A stretch of DNA of 41,776 nt from Candidatus Saccharibacteria bacterium RIFCSPHIGHO2_12_FULL_41_12. Its GTDB lineage: Bacteria; Patescibacteriota; Saccharimonadia; Saccharimonadales; 2-12-FULL-41-12. How positions within the stretch are numbered: position 1 is the stretch's first letter; each line of letters begins with the position of its first letter. The stretch is taken from assembly GCA_001790445.1 (NCBI GenBank), contig MGCQ01000007.1, positions 17,030 through 58,805 of the forward strand. The letters are read 5' to 3'. The translations under genes were made by a program, and so were the position numbers. This document shows, piece after piece, positions 11,260 through 21,666 of this stretch. The notes beneath the pieces were generated by a model, which saw nothing but the letters and a program-made list of their open reading frames with translations, did no database searches and had not been told where the DNA came from.

Positions 11260-12180
11260 ATGAACTACTCAACACAGTTAAAATCTATCCTCAACGCCTC
11301 TGGTTGGTCTCAAGAACAGTTGGCGCATAACCTCAACGTATCTTTTGCGACGCTTAACTCTTGGATCAATGACCGCTCACAACCGAGAGCTAAAGCATTA
11401 CTGAGCATTGAAAAACTGTATCTTGATACGGTCGGCGTAGATAGTGTAGACGATGCAGCACTCATGCCAGCCAAACTGGCCGCATTGAAGCTATTGGCTA
11501 GCCCCAAATCAATCTCTGGTAGTAAAGAAGTTCTAGATAAATTAACTCTTTACCTGACTTATCACACCAACACTATTGAAGGTAGCACGATGACCCTCAG
11601 TGATGTTGAAGATGTTATCTTTGACCATAAAGTATTATCCAATCGTACCGCCATAGAACAGACCGAGGCGCGCAACCACCAAGCAACGCTCCACTGGTTG
11701 CTACAGGAACTTGTAGATAAGGGTAATGGCTTTGTTATTGATGAGAAGCTAATACTTGGTATTCACTTACGCCTCATGAATGGGATTATCAGCGATGCAG
11801 GCCAGTATCGAAAACATGCTGTGCGGATTATAGGTTCGCATGTGGCCTTGGCTAACTGGGCAAAAGTACCCGAACTTGTAGCCAGCCTTATCGATGACTT
11901 AAAAAGCCCATCTACGGATATCATCAAAGTGTTAGCTGCTACTCATGCCCGATTTGAGAAAATACATCCGTTTAGTGATGGCAATGGACGTGCTGGTCGT
12001 TTAATTTTGCTCGCTCAAGCCCTCAAAGCTGGACTTATCCCACCACTAGTAGTTAAAGAGCGCAAGCATGCTTACTACAAATATCTTGAACTTGCCCAAA
12101 CTAAGGATGACTACATGCCACTCGAGCTGTTTATCTCTGAATCTATGCACTTCACGCAGGAGCTGCTCAATAGTAAGTAG
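11260..12180 (+). CDS. Fic/DOC family protein with N-terminal XRE-type HTH; class II-like inhibitory motif
   Basis: 306 aa; HPFSDGNGRAGR Fic motif; TNTIEG fits (S/T)xxxE(G/N); N-terminal 'NASGWSQEQLAHNLNVSFATLNSWINDRSQP' HTH. Confidence 0.93.
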   Translation: MNYSTQLKSILNASGWSQEQLAHNLNVSFATLNSWINDRSQPRAKALLSIEKLYLDTVGVDSVDDAALMPAKLAALKLLASPKSISGSKEVLDKLTLYLTYHTNTIEGSTMTLSDVEDVIFDHKVLSNRTAIEQTEARNHQATLHWLLQELVDKGNGFVIDEKLILGIHLRLMNGIISDAGQYRKHAVRIIGSHVALANWAKVPELVASLIDDLKSPSTDIIKVLAATHARFEKIHPFSDGNGRAGRLILLAQALKAGLIPPLVVKERKHAYYKYLELAQTKDDYMPLELFISESMHFTQELLNSK

Positions 12181-12349: not shown

Positions 12350-13921
12350 ATGTCCGAAGACCAGAAAAAACAGCTACAAACCCAACTATGGAAAATCGCT
12401 AACGAACTACGTGGCAAGATGGATGCTGATGAATTTCGCGATTATATCCTTGGCTTCATCTTTTACAAATATCTTTCAGAAAAAATTGAGCTCTACGCCA
12501 ACAAAGAGCTTTTAGCCAATGACGGCATCAAGTACGCCGATATTGATGAATCTACGGATCAGGGAGCAGAAATTTTAGGGGCTGTGAAAATCGCGGCCAT
12601 CGACAAACTTGGCTATTTCCTCAAACCCAGCGAGCTGTTCCATCACGTTGCTGCGCACGGCAATCTGAACGACAACCTGATCGAACAGCTAGAAAAGACT
12701 CTGGGCGATATCGAATCTAGCACTATGGGCCAAGATAGCGAAGACGACTTTGACAAACTTTTTTCAGAGCTTGACCTCAACGCTAGTCGTTTGGGCAAAA
12801 CTGTTAGCCAACGCAACGATCTCATCGCCAAAGTACTGGTACATCTGGATAAAATTGATTTTCAGCTAGAAAATTCTCAGATCGATATTCTGGGCGATGC
12901 CTACGAATATCTGATCAGCCAATTTGCCAGTGGCGCCGGTAAAAAAGCTGGTGAATTCTACACTCCCCAAGAAGTAAGCACTATACTGGCCCGGGTCGTC
13001 ACGAACGGCAAAAAACAGCTCAAAAGTGTCTACGATCCAACCTGTGGCTCTGGCTCATTATTGCTGCGAGTAGCCAAATATGTGCAAGATGTTGATCATT
13101 TTTATGGTCAAGAACTAAATAACACCACCTACAACCTAGCGCGCATGAATATGATTTTGCATGACGTACATTTTGCCAATTTTGACATCAAGCAAGAGGA
13201 CACGCTCGAGAACCCACAACATGCCGAGCTACGTTTTGAGGCAATTGTTGCCAATCCGCCCTTTAGCGCCAACTGGTCAGCAAATCCGATCCACCTCAGT
13301 GATGATCGTTTTAGCCAATACGGCAAACTGGCACCCAGCAGCAAAGCAGATTATGCGTTTATTCAGCATATGGTTTACCAGCTCGACGACAACGGCACTA
13401 TGGCGGTGGTTATGCCACATGGCGTGCTATTTCGCGGGGCGGCTGAAGGCCATATCCGCCAATATTTGATCAAAGAAAAGAACTATCTCGATGCCGTGAT
13501 TGGTTTGCCTGCAAATTTGTTCTTTGGTACTAGCATTCCAGCCTGTATTTTAGTGTTCAAAAAATGCCGCACCAACCCAAATGATATTTTGTTTATTGAT
13601 TCCAGCCAACACTTTGAAAAGGGCAAGAACCAAAACCGACTGCGTCCGAGCGATATCGATAAAATCATCGAAACATACAGCCGACGCAAAAGCGAAGATA
13701 AATACAGCTACGTCGCTCCGCTTAGCGAGGTAAAAGAAAACGACTACAACCTCAACATCCCCCGCTACGTCGACACATTTGAGGAAGAGGAAGAGATCGA
13801 CCTCGACAAAGTCGTGGCAGAAATCCGCAAAATAGACAAAGAGTCAGTAGGAATTGACCAAAAAATCGCAAAATACACCAAGGAACTCGGCATAAACTCG
13901 CCATTCGGAGAAATAAAATGA
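12350..13921 (+). CDS. hsdM: Type I restriction-modification system methyltransferase subunit HsdM
   Basis: 523 aa; 'DPTCGSGSLLLRVAKY', 'NPPFS', 'GEFYTPQEVSTILARVV' N6-adenine MTase motifs. Confidence 0.96.
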   Translation: MSEDQKKQLQTQLWKIANELRGKMDADEFRDYILGFIFYKYLSEKIELYANKELLANDGIKYADIDESTDQGAEILGAVKIAAIDKLGYFLKPSELFHHVAAHGNLNDNLIEQLEKTLGDIESSTMGQDSEDDFDKLFSELDLNASRLGKTVSQRNDLIAKVLVHLDKIDFQLENSQIDILGDAYEYLISQFASGAGKKAGEFYTPQEVSTILARVVTNGKKQLKSVYDPTCGSGSLLLRVAKYVQDVDHFYGQELNNTTYNLARMNMILHDVHFANFDIKQEDTLENPQHAELRFEAIVANPPFSANWSANPIHLSDDRFSQYGKLAPSSKADYAFIQHMVYQLDDNGTMAVVMPHGVLFRGAAEGHIRQYLIKEKNYLDAVIGLPANLFFGTSIPACILVFKKCRTNPNDILFIDSSQHFEKGKNQNRLRPSDIDKIIETYSRRKSEDKYSYVAPLSEVKENDYNLNIPRYVDTFEEEEEIDLDKVVAEIRKIDKESVGIDQKIAKYTKELGINSPFGEIK

Positions 13922-14562
13922 GTAGTTACATATTTATGGACGAAAGCGGTGATTTGGGCTTCGATTTTACCAAAAAGAAAACCTCTCACTATTTTGTGGT
14001 AACCTTTTTATTTGCGAAAGACAAGAAAAAGCTTAACAAGTTGGTTCGGAAGATTTTTAGAAACTTTAGCAAAACAGAAATAAAAAATCACCACGGCACG
14101 CTACACGCATTCAAGGAAAAACCCGTAACTCGCATGCGGTTATTGAATCTACTCTCAGAGCAAGACGTGTATATTCTGACCGTTAGAATGAATAAAAAGA
14201 ACGTCTATACAAAATTGCAAGATGAAAAACACGTACTCTATAACTATGTGGTGAATATATTGCTAGATAGAATGATCAGAAAAAAGCTAGTCCCACAGAA
14301 CAAGCCCGTACACTTTGTTGCATCAAAAAGAGAAACGAACAAGTTTTTGAACGAAAACTTTGCGACATATCTTAAAGAACAGTCTAAAACTAATCACAAA
14401 CTAGATATTAATATTGAGATCAAAACCCCTAGTGAAGAAAAAGGGTTGCAAATTGTAGATAGTTTGGCGTGGAGCTTCTTTAGAAAATACGAGCACGAAG
14501 ATGAATCGTATGCAGACATAGTCAAAGGTAAAGTGGTTGAAGAAAATGGCTTATTCACATAA
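13918..14562 (+). CDS. DUF3800 domain protein embedded in the hsd operon
   Basis: 214 aa; N-terminal 'YIFMDESGDLGFDF' and late 'GLQIVDSLAWSFFRKYE' typical of DUF3800; ATGA overlap with hsdM. Confidence 0.82.
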   Translation: MSSYIFMDESGDLGFDFTKKKTSHYFVVTFLFAKDKKKLNKLVRKIFRNFSKTEIKNHHGTLHAFKEKPVTRMRLLNLLSEQDVYILTVRMNKKNVYTKLQDEKHVLYNYVVNILLDRMIRKKLVPQNKPVHFVASKRETNKFLNENFATYLKEQSKTNHKLDINIEIKTPSEEKGLQIVDSLAWSFFRKYEHEDESYADIVKGKVVEENGLFT

Positions 14563-14724: not shown

Positions 14725-15237
14725 ATGTCCACAATCCCTTTATCAAAAAAGAATAGGCGATTAATCCTCGAGTCATTGAGTAAAAGACAGAATCAACTTT
14801 GGGTAAAGCGCAATGAGCTATTAGAAGATGCAGGGATGAGTGAGGAAGGTATGCACTCAGATTTTATGTATTTGCTCGGCAAGGGGTACATTAGTGTTCC
14901 AGGTCCAGGTCCTATCGATCAGCTACAGTATATTCCTTACGCACACATGAAAATTACAGCTGCGGGTAATGATTATCTAGAGGAGCTTGCTCAAGAGCCA
15001 AAGCAAGCAGAAGCGCAAAAAACATTACTAAGTGTTCCAGGCAATCACAATAAGTTTCATAATGTATCGGTCGGTGGAGGAGTGGACGTGCCTGGCGAGA
15101 ATAATGCATTCACAAAAACAAGTATAGGTCATATACCGAGATCCAATGAACATAAATTGCTTTGGTGGTTTATGAGCATTGTAGCGGGTGTAATTGTTTT
15201 GCTAATAGGTGTGTATGTCCTCGGGGTAGGAAAATGA
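14725..15237 (+). CDS. Uncharacterised protein: N-terminal winged-helix-like region, asparagine/glycine repeat, C-terminal TM helix
   Basis: 170 aa; repeat VPGNHNKFHNVSVGGGVD / VPGENNAFTKTSIGHIPR followed by LLWWFMSIVAGVIVLLIGVYVLGVGK; ATGA overlap with hsdS. Confidence 0.75.
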   Translation: MSTIPLSKKNRRLILESLSKRQNQLWVKRNELLEDAGMSEEGMHSDFMYLLGKGYISVPGPGPIDQLQYIPYAHMKITAAGNDYLEELAQEPKQAEAQKTLLSVPGNHNKFHNVSVGGGVDVPGENNAFTKTSIGHIPRSNEHKLLWWFMSIVAGVIVLLIGVYVLGVGK

Positions 15238-16448
15238 ACACTACAACAACCAAAAAAGTGCCGGAGCTTCGCTTTCCTGAGTTTAGTGGTGAGTGGCAGA
15301 CTATAAAGCTTGGTGATTTTATCGATAGTCTTGATGCAGGAGTTAGCGTAAATTCCGAGGACAGAGTGGCCAAGGATGATGAAAAAGCAATATTAAAAAC
15401 TAGTTGTGTAACCAAAGGCACTTTTGACTGCAAGGAGAATAAGGTCGTTACCGACAGCGCAGAGACTCGAAGGCTAAAAGAATCAATCGAGGTAGATACA
15501 ATCATTATCAGCCGGATGAATACACCACAGTTAGTTGGCGCAAATGCACTTGTACATGAGTCGAACGAGAACATTTTTTTACCTGACAGACTTTGGGCTG
15601 CAAAAATCAAAACCAATGCATCACCAAGATGGATTGCTCTAAAACTTGGTAGTAAAAGTATGCGTGCTCATCTGAGCGTACTAGCAACAGGAACAAGCAA
15701 TTCTATGAAAAACGTCACAAAAGGCGATGTACTTAACGCGAAAATACTTGCTCCGTCGCGCGAGGAGCAGAAGAAGATTGCGGGGTTTTTGGGAGTGGTG
15801 GATGAGAGGGTTGCGGTGATTGATAAAAAAGTCGAGCTGCTGAAAAAATACAGAAAAGGCGTCATGCAAAAAATCTTTCCACCAGCAAACGGACAGACTC
15901 CCAAAATCCGCTTTTCTGATGAAAATGGCAAAAACTACCCTGACTGGCAAGGGAAAAAGCTTGGCGATATATTAGCCTATGAACAACCTACAAAATATAT
16001 TGTTAAATCGACGGAATACGATGATAAATATAAGACACCTGTATTAACAGCCGGCAAGACGTTTATCTTAGGGTATACAGACGAAGAAGACGGAATTAAC
16101 AATGATATTCCGGTCATCATTTTTGACGACTTTACGACCGCTAGTCACTTTGTTGATTTCCCGTTTAAAGTTAAGTCGTCCGCGATGAAAATTCTGAGAA
16201 CAAAAACAGACGTAAATATAAAAGTAGCATACGAGTTACTAAGCAAGATAAAGTTTGTGGTCGGTGATCATAAGCGACACTGGATTGGTGAATTTCAAGA
16301 CTTTGCTATTAACCTACCCAGCGAAAAAGAACAGCAGAAAATCGCAGATTTTCTGACAAACCTAGATGATAAAATTAATGTAGTAGAAAGGCAGCTGGAG
16401 CAGGCCAAAAACTTCAAAAAATCCCTCCTCCAACAAATGTTTGTATGA
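15234..16448 (+). CDS. hsdS: Type I restriction-modification specificity subunit HsdS (two TRDs)
   Basis: ORF 15162..16448, likely start 15234 (ATGA overlap); two conserved helical regions 'SREEQKKIAGFLGVVDERVAVIDKKVELLKKYRKGVMQKIF' and 'SEKEQQKIADFLTNLDDKINVVERQLEQAKNFKKSLLQQMF'. Confidence 0.94.
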   Translation: MNTTTTKKVPELRFPEFSGEWQTIKLGDFIDSLDAGVSVNSEDRVAKDDEKAILKTSCVTKGTFDCKENKVVTDSAETRRLKESIEVDTIIISRMNTPQLVGANALVHESNENIFLPDRLWAAKIKTNASPRWIALKLGSKSMRAHLSVLATGTSNSMKNVTKGDVLNAKILAPSREEQKKIAGFLGVVDERVAVIDKKVELLKKYRKGVMQKIFPPANGQTPKIRFSDENGKNYPDWQGKKLGDILAYEQPTKYIVKSTEYDDKYKTPVLTAGKTFILGYTDEEDGINNDIPVIIFDDFTTASHFVDFPFKVKSSAMKILRTKTDVNIKVAYELLSKIKFVVGDHKRHWIGEFQDFAINLPSEKEQQKIADFLTNLDDKINVVERQLEQAKNFKKSLLQQMFV

Positions 16449-18823
16449 AATTGTGCTTAATTAAAACTATAGAAAACTACAAGTCATTTCAAAATTTTCG
16501 ATGGCAGAATTTTTTTAATTCTCAAGAATTTCATGACACAATAAATATACTCTATGGTGAAAACGGAACTGGGAAAAGCTCAGTTTGTAATATCCTAAAA
16601 AGTGTTTGTGGTGATAAAAAGCCTTTCGTAACAAATCAGATACCTAACGGAATTTGTTTGAAGTTTGACAATGGAGAGTATAAATTTTCAAACAAATCAA
16701 ATGCTTGGGACAAAACTAAAAGTACTGACGATTTTTTGTTTTTCGATCGTGAATTTGTACATGACAACATACATCTAGGGAATATGAGAGATACACAAGC
16801 AAACGGACAGGAACAAAAGTCCGGTAAAATGATTGTTCAATTTGATAGCGAAGCGATAAAGCTCCGTGAAGCTCGTCAAAAAACGAAAAAGGCTAAAGAC
16901 GATAAAGATGGTGAAATCAAAAAATACAATGAAGACCATAAAGATACTTTGAAATTTCTACTTTCAGAAGACGAAAGTCCCTTATTTGATACTTATAAAG
17001 ATAAAACAAAAGAAGAAATTACAGGGCTAAAAAAAGAACTCACAAAAGACAAAAAGGGAACGGAGAAGAAACTTGAAACCGATGGAGCAACTCAAAAACA
17101 AGTTAATGATATTCAAAATTCAATCACCGAAATCAGCAACGAAAAAATTGAATTATCATTATCAGAACAATCGATTTATCAAGCATTTTTCAATTTTGAT
17201 CTAAAAGAACAAGTACAAATACAAGCAGAGCAAGATTTAATTGTCAAAATAAGAAAGCATGAAGATTTTTTTCAAACTGGTATTGAAATCAGAGAAGAAA
17301 ACAAAAGCAAATGCCCGTTTTGCCAGTCAGAGAATGAAGAAGAAAATATTGGAAAAATCATCAAAGCTTACAATGATATTTTTGACGATACTTATAAAAA
17401 ACAGCTTCAATCCTTTGAAGACAATAAAAAAGCACTGATTGAAGAACTGGAAGATCTTGTCAATGCAGTTAAAAACTATGATATCGATTCTGTTTTTGTT
17501 TCCATGAGTGAACTAAATCAAAAATACAAAATCAAAGATATTTATTCAGTAGAAGAACAAAAGAAGCACAAAAAACCGACAACAAACAAGATTGCGGATT
17601 TGAAGAAAAAAATCGAAAATCTAAAAAAGCCAAGAAGTGAAGATATTGTAGAAGTTTACAATAAGGCAAAAACCGAATTTGAAACTTTAGAAACCTTTTT
17701 TGACGATATTTACACATTTATTGAGAAGAAAAACAAACTTATTCGTAAATTTAAAACAGATAATACAGACGAGAAAATACAACAAAGAATCACAGTAAAT
17801 AATCAAAAAATTGGAGAAATTGATTTAAGGATAACTTTTTTTACCGAGGGAAAGATTGACAAACAAAAACAAAAAGAAGCTAAAGAAAAAGGACTTGCGA
17901 CTACTCAAAAGGAATTTGAAGATTTAAGGACAAAACACGATAAAGCGAAAGAAGATTATGAAAAATATTGCTCCGAAGAAGTATTTGAAAAGACTTTGAA
18001 AAAAATCGAAGAATATTTTGATAAATTTAAATTCAGTTTCAAATTAAAATTAAAGACAGAAAAAACAAGAAACAAAACTGAATTTCCTTTTGCTTTCAAG
18101 GTTTTGGATAATGAAGGAGATGAAAGAGATTTTAAGGAAGGATTATCAGAGGGAGAATTGCAAGTTTTATCATTATGCTTTTTCTTTGCTTTTCTTGATA
18201 TACAGACGAATCCTGAAAATAAAGTCTTGGTATTTGATGATCCGATTACGAGCCTTGATAACAACAACTTAAGCCATTTAGTAGATCTAATCGCAGAAGA
18301 ACACGCCAAATTTTCTCAAACTTTTATTTTCACTCATCACAGAACGTTTTTTAAGTTTTTGAGAAAGAGTTTTAAAACTGGAAAAAATAATGGCAATCTA
18401 GGAAATGAATACAACATAATTCGTAACAAAAAAGAACTCGGGGGCAGTTTTATTTGTAAAAGTTGTTCAACAGACTTTAAGAATAAACTGGAAGGTTTTG
18501 AAAATAATATTTATAATAAGGCACAACAAGGAACACCAATAAATATTGAGATGAAAATTGTTGAGTATGGTCAATATTTGAGATATGAAGTAGAAAAATT
18601 TATCAAAAACGATTTACTGTTTTGGGATGCTGATAGTCAATTTTCAAAAGCTATCGATGGTATAAAAAATAGCAGGAATGACATTTCTGATCAGGATTTA
18701 GATAAAATAAATAAAGTTTATGAATTTTGTAATTGGACAACCTCTCATGTAGATGTTGGAGATGACCACGGTCTAGAAACATTGAAAACGAATATAAATA
18801 CCTTTATGGGGATTGTTAAATGA
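16445..18823 (+). CDS. RloC/PrrC-like AAA_13/ABC-type ATPase with coiled coil and CPFC zinc-hook candidate; putative anticodon nuclease
   Basis: 792 aa; Walker A GENGTGKSS, ABC signature LSEGE, Walker B VLVFDDPITSLD, 'FIFTHH' switch; CPFC at residues 290-293 inside a coiled coil; C-terminal R713-x3-E717 and H768. Confidence 0.7.
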   Translation: MKLCLIKTIENYKSFQNFRWQNFFNSQEFHDTINILYGENGTGKSSVCNILKSVCGDKKPFVTNQIPNGICLKFDNGEYKFSNKSNAWDKTKSTDDFLFFDREFVHDNIHLGNMRDTQANGQEQKSGKMIVQFDSEAIKLREARQKTKKAKDDKDGEIKKYNEDHKDTLKFLLSEDESPLFDTYKDKTKEEITGLKKELTKDKKGTEKKLETDGATQKQVNDIQNSITEISNEKIELSLSEQSIYQAFFNFDLKEQVQIQAEQDLIVKIRKHEDFFQTGIEIREENKSKCPFCQSENEEENIGKIIKAYNDIFDDTYKKQLQSFEDNKKALIEELEDLVNAVKNYDIDSVFVSMSELNQKYKIKDIYSVEEQKKHKKPTTNKIADLKKKIENLKKPRSEDIVEVYNKAKTEFETLETFFDDIYTFIEKKNKLIRKFKTDNTDEKIQQRITVNNQKIGEIDLRITFFTEGKIDKQKQKEAKEKGLATTQKEFEDLRTKHDKAKEDYEKYCSEEVFEKTLKKIEEYFDKFKFSFKLKLKTEKTRNKTEFPFAFKVLDNEGDERDFKEGLSEGELQVLSLCFFFAFLDIQTNPENKVLVFDDPITSLDNNNLSHLVDLIAEEHAKFSQTFIFTHHRTFFKFLRKSFKTGKNNGNLGNEYNIIRNKKELGGSFICKSCSTDFKNKLEGFENNIYNKAQQGTPINIEMKIVEYGQYLRYEVEKFIKNDLLFWDADSQFSKAIDGIKNSRNDISDQDLDKINKVYEFCNWTTSHVDVGDDHGLETLKTNINTFMGIVK

Positions 18824-21666
18824 CTACGCAATCCGAACAAACACTAGAAAATAACCTTATCGCTCAGCTGCATGAGATGAAGTACGAGCGGGTTGCTATT
18901 GCTGATGAAGTGGCGTTGGTAGCAAATCTTAAAACACAACTAGAAAAACACAATGGTGTCACGCTGAGCGACAAGGAATTTAGCAAAGTACTGAGTTATC
19001 TGAGCAAAGGCAATGTGTTTGATCGCGCCAAAACGCTACGGGACAAAATGCATTTGGTACGAGATGACGGCACCAGCGCATACATAGAATTTATAAACCA
19101 AAAAAAGTGGTGCCAAAACCAGTTTCAGGTAACGAATCAAGTCACCATAGACGGCGCGTACAAAAACCGCTACGACGTCACGATCCTTGTAAACGGCTTG
19201 CCACTGGTGCAAATAGAGCTAAAACGCCGAGGCCTAGAGCTCAAAGAAGCCTTTAACCAAGTGAACCGCTACCGCAAACATTCGTATGCCGCAGGCTATG
19301 GGCTATACCAGTATGTGCAGATTTTTGTGATTAGCAACGGTGTAAATACAAAATATTATTCCAACACCGTGGGGTACGACAACGACAAAAAAGCATCGTT
19401 CAAATTCACCTCGTACTGGGCAGATAAAGACAACCTAAAAATCACAAAGCTAGAAGATTTTGCCAAAGTTTTCCTAGAAAAATGCCACATCGCCAAGATG
19501 ATTGCCAAATATACGGTGTTACAAACCAACAAAACATTGGTAGTGCTGCGACCGTATCAATATTATGCGGTAGAAGAAATTGTCGACCGCGTAAGTAGTG
19601 GCAACAAAAACGGCTATATTTGGCACACCACAGGCAGCGGCAAAACTCTAACATCGTTTAAAGCCAGTCAACTACTGGTAGATAACCCAGACGTCTACAA
19701 GGTTGTGTTTGTGGTGGACCGTAACGACCTAGACAACCAAACGATTCGTGAATTTAACAATTTTAAAAAAGACAGCGTGGACGCCACTGACAACACTCAT
19801 AGTTTGGTAAAGCAATTTGGCGAGCCCGATACCAAGCTAATCGTCACAACTATTCAAAAGCTCAATAACGCCGTCACGCACGAGCGTCATGCCCTAAAAA
19901 TGGTCACGCATCGCGATAAAAAGATTGTCTTTATCTTTGACGAATGCCATCGCAGCCAGTTTGGCGAAACACACAAGAAAATTACCGAATATTTCACCAA
20001 TCGCCAGTTGTTTGGCTTTACTGGCACACCGATTTTTGCCGAAAACGCCAGCGGCAATGCTATGGGCAAGCGCACTACAAAAGAACTGTTTGGCGAGTGC
20101 CTGCACAAATATGTGATTACCGATGCAATAAGTGATGAAAATGTGCTGAAATTTGCGGTAGAGTATGTCGGTAAATATAGGCGCAAAGACAGCGCCAACG
20201 AGATAGATGTTGATGTAGAAGCCATCGACACCAAAGAGTTGATGGAATCGCCGCAACGGATTGAGAAAATCACTGATTATATTATCGCCAATCACGACCG
20301 CAAGACGCACAGCCGCGATTTTACCGCGATTTTTGCCCTCAGCAGCATAGATGTACTGACAAAATACTATGATATATTTCGAGCCAAGAAACAGTCTGGC
20401 GATCACAACTTGAAAATCGCGACGATATTTAGCTATGGCACCAACGAAGAAGACAAAAATGCCGATAGTATGTTGGATGATGACCCGCAGTTGGATCTAT
20501 TTAGTCAGATCAATCAACATTCGCGCGACAAGCTGGAAAGCTATATTGCGGATTATAACGAGATGTTCGGCACGAGCTATTCTACCAAAGATAGCCAGAG
20601 CTTTTACAACTACTATCGCAACATTGCTGACCGCTTGAAAGCCCGCGAGATCGATATTTTGCTGGTGGTGAATATGTTTTTGACTGGGTTTGATAGCCCG
20701 ACCCTAAACACTATGTACGTAGATAAAAACTTGCGATATCACGGTTTGTTGCAAGCTTACTCTCGAACTAATCGCATATTAAACGAAACGAAATCACAGG
20801 GGAACATTGTGGTGTTTCGTAACCTCAAAAAGGCAACCGATGACGCGCTGCGACTTTTTGCTGATAAAAACGCCCAAGAGGTTATCTTTATGGAGCCGTA
20901 CGAAGATTACGCGGCGAAGTTTGACGAGATGGTGGCGCAACTATACGCACAGACGCCAACCCCCGAAAGTGTTGATAACTTAGTGGGCGAAGAAGCGCAG
21001 TTGGAATTTGTAAAGACGTTTCGTGAGTTAATGCGACTCAAAAACATCCTTGTTTCGTTTGCTGACTTTGATTTTAGCCATGTGTCTATAGGCGAGCAAA
21101 CATTCAATGACTTTAAGAGCAAATATTTGGACATTTACGACAAAGTCAGGGGTGATCACGAGAAAGAAAAGGTGTCAATATTGGAAGACGTCGACTTTGA
21201 ACTGGAGCTGATCCGAAGAGATGAGGTTAACGTGGATTACATTATCCGTCTGCTGGCGCAACTGGTTGGCGCGGATGAGGCCAAGACAGCAAAATTGATG
21301 CAGAACATTATGGACACGATGTCGACTGACGCAACGTTGCGCAGTAAGCGTGAGTTGATAGAGAAGTTTATCAATAGTACGATACCAAATATCTCTAATG
21401 CCGAGGATGTTGAAACGGAGTTTAATAACTTTTGGGACCAAGAAAAGCTCGAAGCTTTTCAGGAAATGTGCAGTGAGGAGGGGCTGATGAATGATAAGCT
21501 GCAGGCACTGATTGATCGCTATTTGTATAGTGGACGCAAGCCACGCAAGGAAGATTTTGCCAAAGCACTCGAAAAACAACCAGGAATTTTGCAAAGAGAA
21601 TCGATTATCAAACGTGTGACCAGCAAGTTTAATGGTTTTATTGAGACCTTTATCGAAGGAGTTTGA
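18820..21666 (+). CDS. hsdR: Type I restriction endonuclease subunit HsdR
   Basis: 948 aa; 'VQIELKRRGLELKEAFNQVNRY' nuclease region; 'GYIWHTTGSGKTLTSFKAS', 'IFDECHRSQFG' helicase motifs. Confidence 0.96.
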   Translation: MTTQSEQTLENNLIAQLHEMKYERVAIADEVALVANLKTQLEKHNGVTLSDKEFSKVLSYLSKGNVFDRAKTLRDKMHLVRDDGTSAYIEFINQKKWCQNQFQVTNQVTIDGAYKNRYDVTILVNGLPLVQIELKRRGLELKEAFNQVNRYRKHSYAAGYGLYQYVQIFVISNGVNTKYYSNTVGYDNDKKASFKFTSYWADKDNLKITKLEDFAKVFLEKCHIAKMIAKYTVLQTNKTLVVLRPYQYYAVEEIVDRVSSGNKNGYIWHTTGSGKTLTSFKASQLLVDNPDVYKVVFVVDRNDLDNQTIREFNNFKKDSVDATDNTHSLVKQFGEPDTKLIVTTIQKLNNAVTHERHALKMVTHRDKKIVFIFDECHRSQFGETHKKITEYFTNRQLFGFTGTPIFAENASGNAMGKRTTKELFGECLHKYVITDAISDENVLKFAVEYVGKYRRKDSANEIDVDVEAIDTKELMESPQRIEKITDYIIANHDRKTHSRDFTAIFALSSIDVLTKYYDIFRAKKQSGDHNLKIATIFSYGTNEEDKNADSMLDDDPQLDLFSQINQHSRDKLESYIADYNEMFGTSYSTKDSQSFYNYYRNIADRLKAREIDILLVVNMFLTGFDSPTLNTMYVDKNLRYHGLLQAYSRTNRILNETKSQGNIVVFRNLKKATDDALRLFADKNAQEVIFMEPYEDYAAKFDEMVAQLYAQTPTPESVDNLVGEEAQLEFVKTFRELMRLKNILVSFADFDFSHVSIGEQTFNDFKSKYLDIYDKVRGDHEKEKVSILEDVDFELELIRRDEVNVDYIIRLLAQLVGADEAKTAKLMQNIMDTMSTDATLRSKRELIEKFINSTIPNISNAEDVETEFNNFWDQEKLEAFQEMCSEEGLMNDKLQALIDRYLYSGRKPRKEDFAKALEKQPGILQRESIIKRVTSKFNGFIETFIEGV

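What the first reader, a model, noticed from the sequence alone, without database searches (positions are those of the whole stretch)
16445..18823. RloC-like protein with CPFC zinc-hook candidate and R-x3-E...H C-terminal residues
Seen: Walker A GENGTGKS (aa 38-45), CPFC at aa 290-293 (nt 17312-17323) flanked by long Lys/Glu coiled-coil sequence, LSEGE, Walker B VLVFDDP, FTHH. Past the ATPase core lie R713-x3-E717 (nt 18581) and H768 (nt 18746). Established: PrrC's proposed catalytic triad is Arg320-Glu324-His356, i.e. an R-x3-E spacing, and RloC has a CxxC zinc hook. The R-to-H spacing here (55) is longer than in PrrC (36). A second CxxC (CKSC, in GGSFICKSCSTDF) sits between the ATPase core and the candidate nuclease region.
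Basis: partly seen in the sequence, partly recalled or inferred. Interest (0 to 1): 0.72.

Follow-up and report, generated by a model that had tools for sequence, protein, structure and literature searches.

The report
RloC tRNA-cutter inside restriction operon
This gene encodes an ordinary-looking member of the RloC family of self-poisoning tRNA-cutting enzymes, sitting inside a DNA restriction operon of a tiny-genome bacterium at the place where the related enzyme PrrC is found; the family is known, and the mildly interesting part is that this place in the operon acts as an exchangeable slot for many anti-virus genes.

Summary
The 792-aa protein has every sequence-testable mark of RloC: an ABC/Rad50-type ATPase, a coiled coil interrupted by one CxxC zinc hook (C290/C293), and R713-x3-E717-x50-H768. 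The published RloC motif is R-x3-E-x36-52-H, so the 'long' spacing is normal for RloC. The motif alone is weak evidence (25% of shuffled tails contain it). Conservation is strong: in 77 non-redundant homologues C290, C293, R713 and E717 are 77/77 and H768 is 76/77. The second CxxC is shared with only one close relative. The predicted C-terminal domain resembles HEPN RNases best, without significant E-values.

The gene overlaps hsdS and hsdR by four bases each, in PrrC's position. Related type I operons in the same class carry something else there: a reverse transcriptase, Shedu, a PHP-AAA protein or membrane proteins. A more distant type I locus of the same order carries a genuine PrrC whose R/E/H align with the window's. 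RloC has been embedded in this slot repeatedly.

Best reading: a second-line anticodon nuclease. New member of a known kind; tRNA cleavage is inferred, not shown.

The parts
16445..18823 (+). rloC-like gene, 792 aa: ABC/Rad50-type ATPase, coiled coil with zinc hook, C-terminal HEPN-like nuclease domain
   Evidence: Pfam AAA_13 E 4.6e-38 over aa 24-774; PADLOC PDC-S06; conservation
16556..16579 (+). Walker A GENGTGKS (aa 38-45)
   Evidence: N40, G43, K44 77/77
17312..17323 (+). zinc-hook candidate CPFC (aa 290-293) in a gap between predicted helices 273-285 and 299-312
   Evidence: C290 and C293 77/77; AlphaFold2 helices
18143..18157 (+). ABC signature LSEGE (aa 567-571)
   Evidence: S568 77/77
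18224..18244 (+). Walker B / D-loop start VLVFDDP (aa 594-600)
   Evidence: D598, D599, P600, D605 77/77
18329..18340 (+). FTHH switch region (aa 629-632)
   Evidence: H631 76/77
18362..18820 (+). C-terminal region folded separately (aa 640-792); helical nuclease domain, HEPN-like
   Evidence: model md3a58cbf653f, pLDDT 72.6, pTM 0.62; Foldseek
18455..18466 (+). second CxxC, CKSC (aa 671-674); not conserved
18581..18595 (+). R713-x3-E717, two residues of the predicted catalytic triad
   Evidence: 77/77 each; align with R304/E308 of an hsd-linked PrrC
18743..18748 (+). S767-H768, third residue of the triad with the usual preceding Ser
   Evidence: H 76/77, S 39/77
12350..13921 (+). hsdM, type I modification subunit
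   Evidence: TIGR00497 E 3.7e-142
13918..14562 (+). DUF3800 gene, cargo between hsdM and hsdS, ATGA overlap with hsdM
   Evidence: PF12686 E 2.5e-14
14725..15237 (+). 170-aa gene of unknown family between hsdM and hsdS
   Evidence: no significant family match
15234..16448 (+). hsdS, type I specificity subunit; ends with ATGA overlap with rloC
   Evidence: PF01420 E 1.2e-19; junction read
18820..21666 (+). hsdR, EcoR124/type IC-like restriction subunit; starts in ATGA overlap with rloC
   Evidence: TIGR00348 E 3.2e-152; EcoR124_C E 1.8e-69
11260..12180 (+). HTH-Fic/DOC gene just upstream of hsdM
   Evidence: PF02661 E 9.3e-19

Best explanation
The gene encodes an RloC-type anticodon nuclease, carried as exchangeable cargo inside an intact type IC-like restriction operon and acting as a second line of defence. 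Shown from sequence: the domain order ATPase / coiled coil with zinc hook / C-terminal domain with near-invariant R713, E717 and H768, and the overlap with hsdS and hsdR. Inferred from studied RloCs: in the resting cell the zinc hook and ATPase hold the nuclease off; linear DNA ends (from phage attack, genome breakdown or restriction) drive one ATP cycle that releases it; the HEPN-like domain cuts tRNA at the anticodon, probably on both sides of the wobble base, and stops translation. Inferred from PrrC: because it sits in the PrrC position, the linked HsdMSR complex may add a second restraint that is lifted when a phage blocks restriction.
For: All defining RloC sequence features are met. The ATPase and coiled coil resemble Rad50/SMC. 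In an unbiased search of 350,542 PDB chains, 10 of the top 16 structural neighbours of the C-terminal model are HEPN or HepT-type toxin chains, and PrrC/RloC nuclease domains are assigned to HEPN in the literature (PMC3710099). A genuine PrrC (PADLOC E 5.5e-82) lies between hsdS and hsdR in a genome of the same order, and its R304, E308, H342 align with R713, E717, H768. Four-base overlaps join rloC to hsdS and hsdR. Six further rloC genes lie between hsdS and hsdR elsewhere.
Against: No activity data. The HEPN match has no significant E-value (best 0.36) and the domain model is of moderate confidence. The canonical HEPN R-x4-6-H spacing is not seen before H768 (N763 stands five residues upstream). 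Control by the linked restriction enzyme is only positional: in Acinetobacter baylyi, where R-M is unlinked, RloC activation did not need it (PMC3874168). The tRNA target cannot be read from the sequence.
Confidence: 0.85

Rival explanations
1. It is a PrrC-like restriction guard in its control: HsdMSR silences the nuclease and phage inhibition of restriction releases it, with the zinc-hook switch secondary.
For: Same position and overlapping reading frames as the prr arrangement, in a type IC-like operon; true PrrC occupies the same slot in a genome of the same order.
Against: The protein keeps the complete RloC internal switch (zinc hook 77/77), and its closest relatives lie outside type I loci: L001 beside an AlwI-like type II system, L009 alone beside a serine recombinase. 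The same slot holds unrelated defence genes, so position need not mean control.
Confidence: 0.25
2. It is an RloC-fold ABC-HEPN defence protein that cuts an RNA other than the tRNA anticodon.
For: Only a few RloC/PrrC proteins have been assayed; the window clade is distant from the rest (at most about 21% identity outside it); no substrate-recognition signature could be tested.
Against: The full triad and the RloC architecture are kept; the RloC members described in the papers read cut anticodons (PMC2610378, PMC3874168).
Confidence: 0.15
3. It is a Rad50/SbcC-like DNA repair or DNA-cutting protein without RNase activity.
For: Rad50-like head and zinc hook.
Against: Rad50 and SbcC lack the C-terminal domain with the triad (PMC2610378); no Mre11/SbcD partner is encoded next to it; the triad is as conserved as the Walker motifs.
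Confidence: 0.04
4. The motif match is chance and the C-terminus is unrelated to anticodon nucleases.
For: The spacing pattern occurs in 25% of shuffled tails.
Against: R and E 77/77 and H 76/77 across deeply diverged homologues; triad in register with a PrrC.
Confidence: 0.01

Closest known systems
RloC (Geobacillus kaustophilus, Acinetobacter baylyi; C. jejuni restriction-linked orf family)
   Same: Size class, ABC ATPase, coiled coil with a CxxC at about aa 290 (C291 in G. kaustophilus), R-x3-E-x36-52-H often preceded by Ser; C. jejuni rlo genes are also inserted in type I loci (PMC2610378).
   Different: Other family members found here outside its small clade are only 13-21% identical; it is embedded in a type I operon, whereas the 2008 survey found linkage to type I or III in only 8 of 73 cases. 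The characterised RloC sequences themselves were not available for direct alignment.
PrrC of the type IC prr locus
   Same: Position between hsdS and hsdR of a type IC-like operon; ATPase motifs; triad in register with a Patescibacteria-type PrrC.
   Different: About twice as long; has the coiled coil and zinc hook that PrrC lacks; does not match the PADLOC PrrC model.
DarTG2 and TgvAB embedded in type I operons
   Same: A second defence system inserted between hsd genes (PMC12255303, PMC11411939).
   Different: Unrelated proteins and mechanisms; in enteropathogenic E. coli and Vibrio rather than a small-genome lineage.
Rad50/SbcC
   Same: ATPase head, coiled coil, zinc hook.
   Different: No C-terminal nuclease domain; work with a separate DNase partner.

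Membership tests
RloC | ABC-ATPase motifs (Walker A, signature, Walker B, switch His) | tested here: met
RloC | coiled coil interrupted by a CxxC zinc hook | tested here: met
   C290/C293 77/77; long helices on either side in the model; zinc binding itself not tested
RloC | C-terminal R-x3-E-x36-52-H, Ser often before His | tested here: met
   R713-x3-E717-x50-H768 with S767; conserved; definition from PMC2610378
RloC | length 658-897 aa | tested here: met
   792 aa
RloC | anticodon nuclease that excises the wobble nucleotide; activated by DNA ends and ATP | not testable with these tools
   needs expression and a tRNA assay
PrrC | linked to a type IC R-M operon | tested here: met
   hsdM-(cargo)-hsdS-rloC-hsdR, EcoR124_C domain in HsdR
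PrrC | short protein (about 370-400 aa) without coiled coil or zinc hook; match to PrrC model | tested here: not met
   792 aa with zinc hook; no PADLOC PrrC match, whereas the 373-aa L142 protein matches it at 5.5e-82
HEPN superfamily | all-helical HEPN fold of the C-terminal domain | tested here: inconclusive
   10 of top 16 PDB neighbours are HEPN or HepT-type toxins but best E is 0.36; sequence-profile search of PDB found none
HEPN superfamily | R-x4-6-H motif | tested here: not met
   N763, not R, stands five residues before H768; R713 lies on an earlier helix, as in the RloC homologues aligned
Rad50/SbcC | partner DNase and absence of a C-terminal nuclease domain | tested here: not met
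   C-terminal triad domain present; neighbours are hsd genes

The most novel reading that the evidence does not exclude
This is a two-key anticodon nuclease: an RloC with its own DNA-end-sensing zinc-hook switch that has, by moving into the PrrC slot of a type IC operon, also come under control of the restriction enzyme, so that either DNA damage or inhibition of restriction fires it; and the slot between hsdS and hsdR in this restriction family is a general docking place whose varied cargo (RloC, AbiP2-type RT, Shedu, PHP-AAA and others) is coupled to the state of restriction.
Probability: 0.2. Interest if true: 0.6.

Novelty: new member of a known kind. Interest (0 to 1): 0.32.

Why it matters
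RloC is a known family, so the gene by itself adds one more clade, in a small-genome lineage where such defence is little described. More useful is the natural experiment around it: closely related type IC-like operons that differ mainly in the gene between hsdS and hsdR, with RloC here, unrelated defence genes in others, and PrrC in a more distant type I locus of the same order. That makes the question of whether restriction enzymes control whatever is plugged into that position, as EcoprrI controls PrrC, directly testable by swapping cargo in a laboratory host.

Tried and rejected
The genome-contig scan with the single protein gave only one locus; phage records gave none. The own genome holds no second copy. 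phmmer and profile searches of PDB sequences found Rad50/SMC heads but no solved PrrC or RloC and no HEPN. Foldseek of the C-terminal model against viral predicted structures gave nothing meaningful. Importance of the second CxxC was considered and rejected. The idea that the window clade had long coevolved with type I loci was rejected: its sister sequences are outside type I loci and the hsd-embedded state needs at least six changes on the tree. The idea that the slot is filled in all type I loci of the class was rejected: in the more distant HsdR subfamily (about 41% identical) hsdS and hsdR are often directly adjacent. No attempt was made to name the host; the small genome (856 kb) and the sizes of its kin fit a Patescibacteria-type lineage, by inference only.

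Full report
What was claimed and what is there. Pfam places the whole length in AAA_13 (E 4.6e-38), a family that also matches the PrrC found below; PADLOC places it in PDC-S06. The primary definition of RloC (PMC2610378) is: ABC-ATPase motifs shared with PrrC, a coiled coil interrupted by a CxxC zinc hook, 658-897 aa, and a C-terminal Arg-x3-Glu-x36-52-His in which Ser often precedes His. The window protein has 792 aa, C290PFC293, and R713-x3-E717-x50-H768 with S767 before the His. The R-to-H spacing that looked long beside PrrC is inside the RloC range.

Is it more than chance? The motifs alone are weak: a matching R/E/H pattern appears in 25% of shuffled tails and a CxxC in 13% of shuffled copies. 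Conservation decides it. In 77 non-redundant homologues from genomes, plasmids and viral contigs, C290, C293, R713 and E717 are invariant and H768 is present in 76. In a 15-sequence alignment they are among only 15 invariant columns, along with the nucleotide-binding residues. The second CxxC is shared only with L001 (80% identical); L009 (52%) has CKSK there. It carries no weight.

Structure. AlphaFold2 on the window protein with 45 relatives gives a confident Rad50-like head, a helical coiled coil with CPFC in the gap between helices 273-285 and 299-312, and a helical C-terminal domain (mean pLDDT 74.3; the coiled coil is of lower confidence). Foldseek's best solved matches are Rad50 and SMC proteins. 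The C-terminal part modelled alone (aa 640-792, pLDDT 72.6, pTM 0.62) has no significant match in the PDB, but 10 of its 16 nearest chains are HEPN or HepT-type toxins (MntA-HepT, HEPN-MNT, AF_0298 and others; best probability 0.80, E 0.36). PrrC and RloC nuclease domains are assigned to HEPN in PMC3710099. I treat HEPN as likely, not proven. R713 and E717 lie on the helix of aa 701-724 and H768 just after the helix of aa 749-766; the canonical HEPN R-x4-6-H arginine is not present before H768.

Surroundings. The gene lies in a type I operon: hsdM (12350-13921), a DUF3800 gene, a 170-aa gene, hsdS (15234-16448), rloC, hsdR (18820-21666), with an HTH-Fic gene upstream. HsdR has the EcoR124 C-terminal domain of type IC enzymes. 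rloC overlaps hsdS and hsdR by four bases each (ATGA), hsdM overlaps the DUF3800 gene likewise, and rloC is much more AT-rich (GC 0.297, GC3 0.246) than hsdM and hsdR (GC 0.45 and 0.44), as expected of an acquired insert. The position is that of prrC, which is described as invariably linked to type IC loci (PMC2610378, PMC3874168). Association of RloC-like genes with R-M and Fic/DOC genes has been described (PMC3710099).

Is the position meaningful? Operons of the same class with HsdR 65-72% and HsdM 66-82% identical carry other genes between hsdS and hsdR: an AbiP2-type reverse transcriptase (L042, L045), a UG14-like reverse transcriptase (L047), Shedu SduA (L043 and its near-copy L044), a PHP-AAA protein with a SocA/Panacea-HTH gene (L049), and small membrane proteins (L046, L048); an interrupted hsdR locus (L143) has a 239-aa gene there. 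None of these was empty. The hsdM-hsdS gap is variable too: DUF3800 here, a PD-T7-4 protein in L043, a GIY-YIG/PDC-S14 protein in L047. In a more distant HsdR subfamily (about 41% identical) hsdS and hsdR are often directly adjacent, but one such locus of the same order, L142, has a genuine 373-aa PrrC there (PADLOC E 5.5e-82), with R304, E308, H342 in register with R713, E717, H768 and no CxxC. So the same slot holds RloC in one genome and PrrC in another of the same order. Defence genes embedded between hsd genes are known elsewhere (DarTG2, PMC12255303, which suggests a recombination hotspot; TgvAB and RloF, PMC11411939), so the slot itself is not new; its turnover in this lineage is a useful extension.

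History. On a quick tree of 77 homologues the window groups with L001 (support 99) and L009 (100), then L010 (99). L001 sits beside an AlwI-like type II system, L009 alone beside a serine recombinase, L010 between hsdS and hsdR. The hsd-embedded state, found in seven rows, needs at least six changes on the tree: RloC has entered or left this slot repeatedly. Some contigs are too short to show their neighbours, so this count is approximate.

Mechanism. Shown: architecture, conservation, operon overlap. Inferred from characterised RloCs: restraint by zinc hook and ATPase, activation by DNA ends with one ATP cycle, excision of the wobble nucleotide (PMC2610378, PMC3874168). Inferred from PrrC: possible additional restraint by HsdMSR. 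The one tested RloC with unlinked R-M did not need it; I found no test of an hsd-embedded RloC in the papers read. Verdict: a sound new member of the RloC family, in PrrC's place.

Noticed in passing
L042-L049, L143 (related type I loci of the same class): The gap between hsdS and hsdR holds a different gene in nearly every locus (AbiP2 RT, UG14-like RT, Shedu, PHP-AAA plus Panacea-HTH, small membrane proteins), and so does the hsdM-hsdS gap; none of these close relatives has an empty hsdS-hsdR slot.
   Followed up: partly
L142:2969-4087 (-): A genuine PrrC (373 aa) between hsdS and hsdR in a small-genome bacterium of the same order as the window.
   Followed up: yes
L001:3569-5377: A 602-aa ORF fusing a full RadC (UPF0758 plus JAB) to a D12-class adenine methyltransferase, next to an AlwI-like endonuclease gene and the 80% identical rloC.
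   Followed up: partly
window 13918-14562 and L017:5011-6123: DUF3800 genes occur near rloC in the window operon and directly upstream of an rloC-like gene on an Arcobacter plasmid.
   Followed up: no
window 14725-15237: 170-aa protein with a hydrophobic C-terminal segment in the hsdM-hsdS gap; no family match.
   Followed up: no
L046:2892-3536, L048:2959-3600: Small membrane proteins (213-214 aa) between hsdS and hsdR with no clear family match; L048 is only faintly like a Drt1b-associated membrane protein (E 0.0095).
   Followed up: no
L134:4267-6781: Gabija-like GajA/GajB pair between hsdM and hsdS of another type I locus.
   Followed up: no
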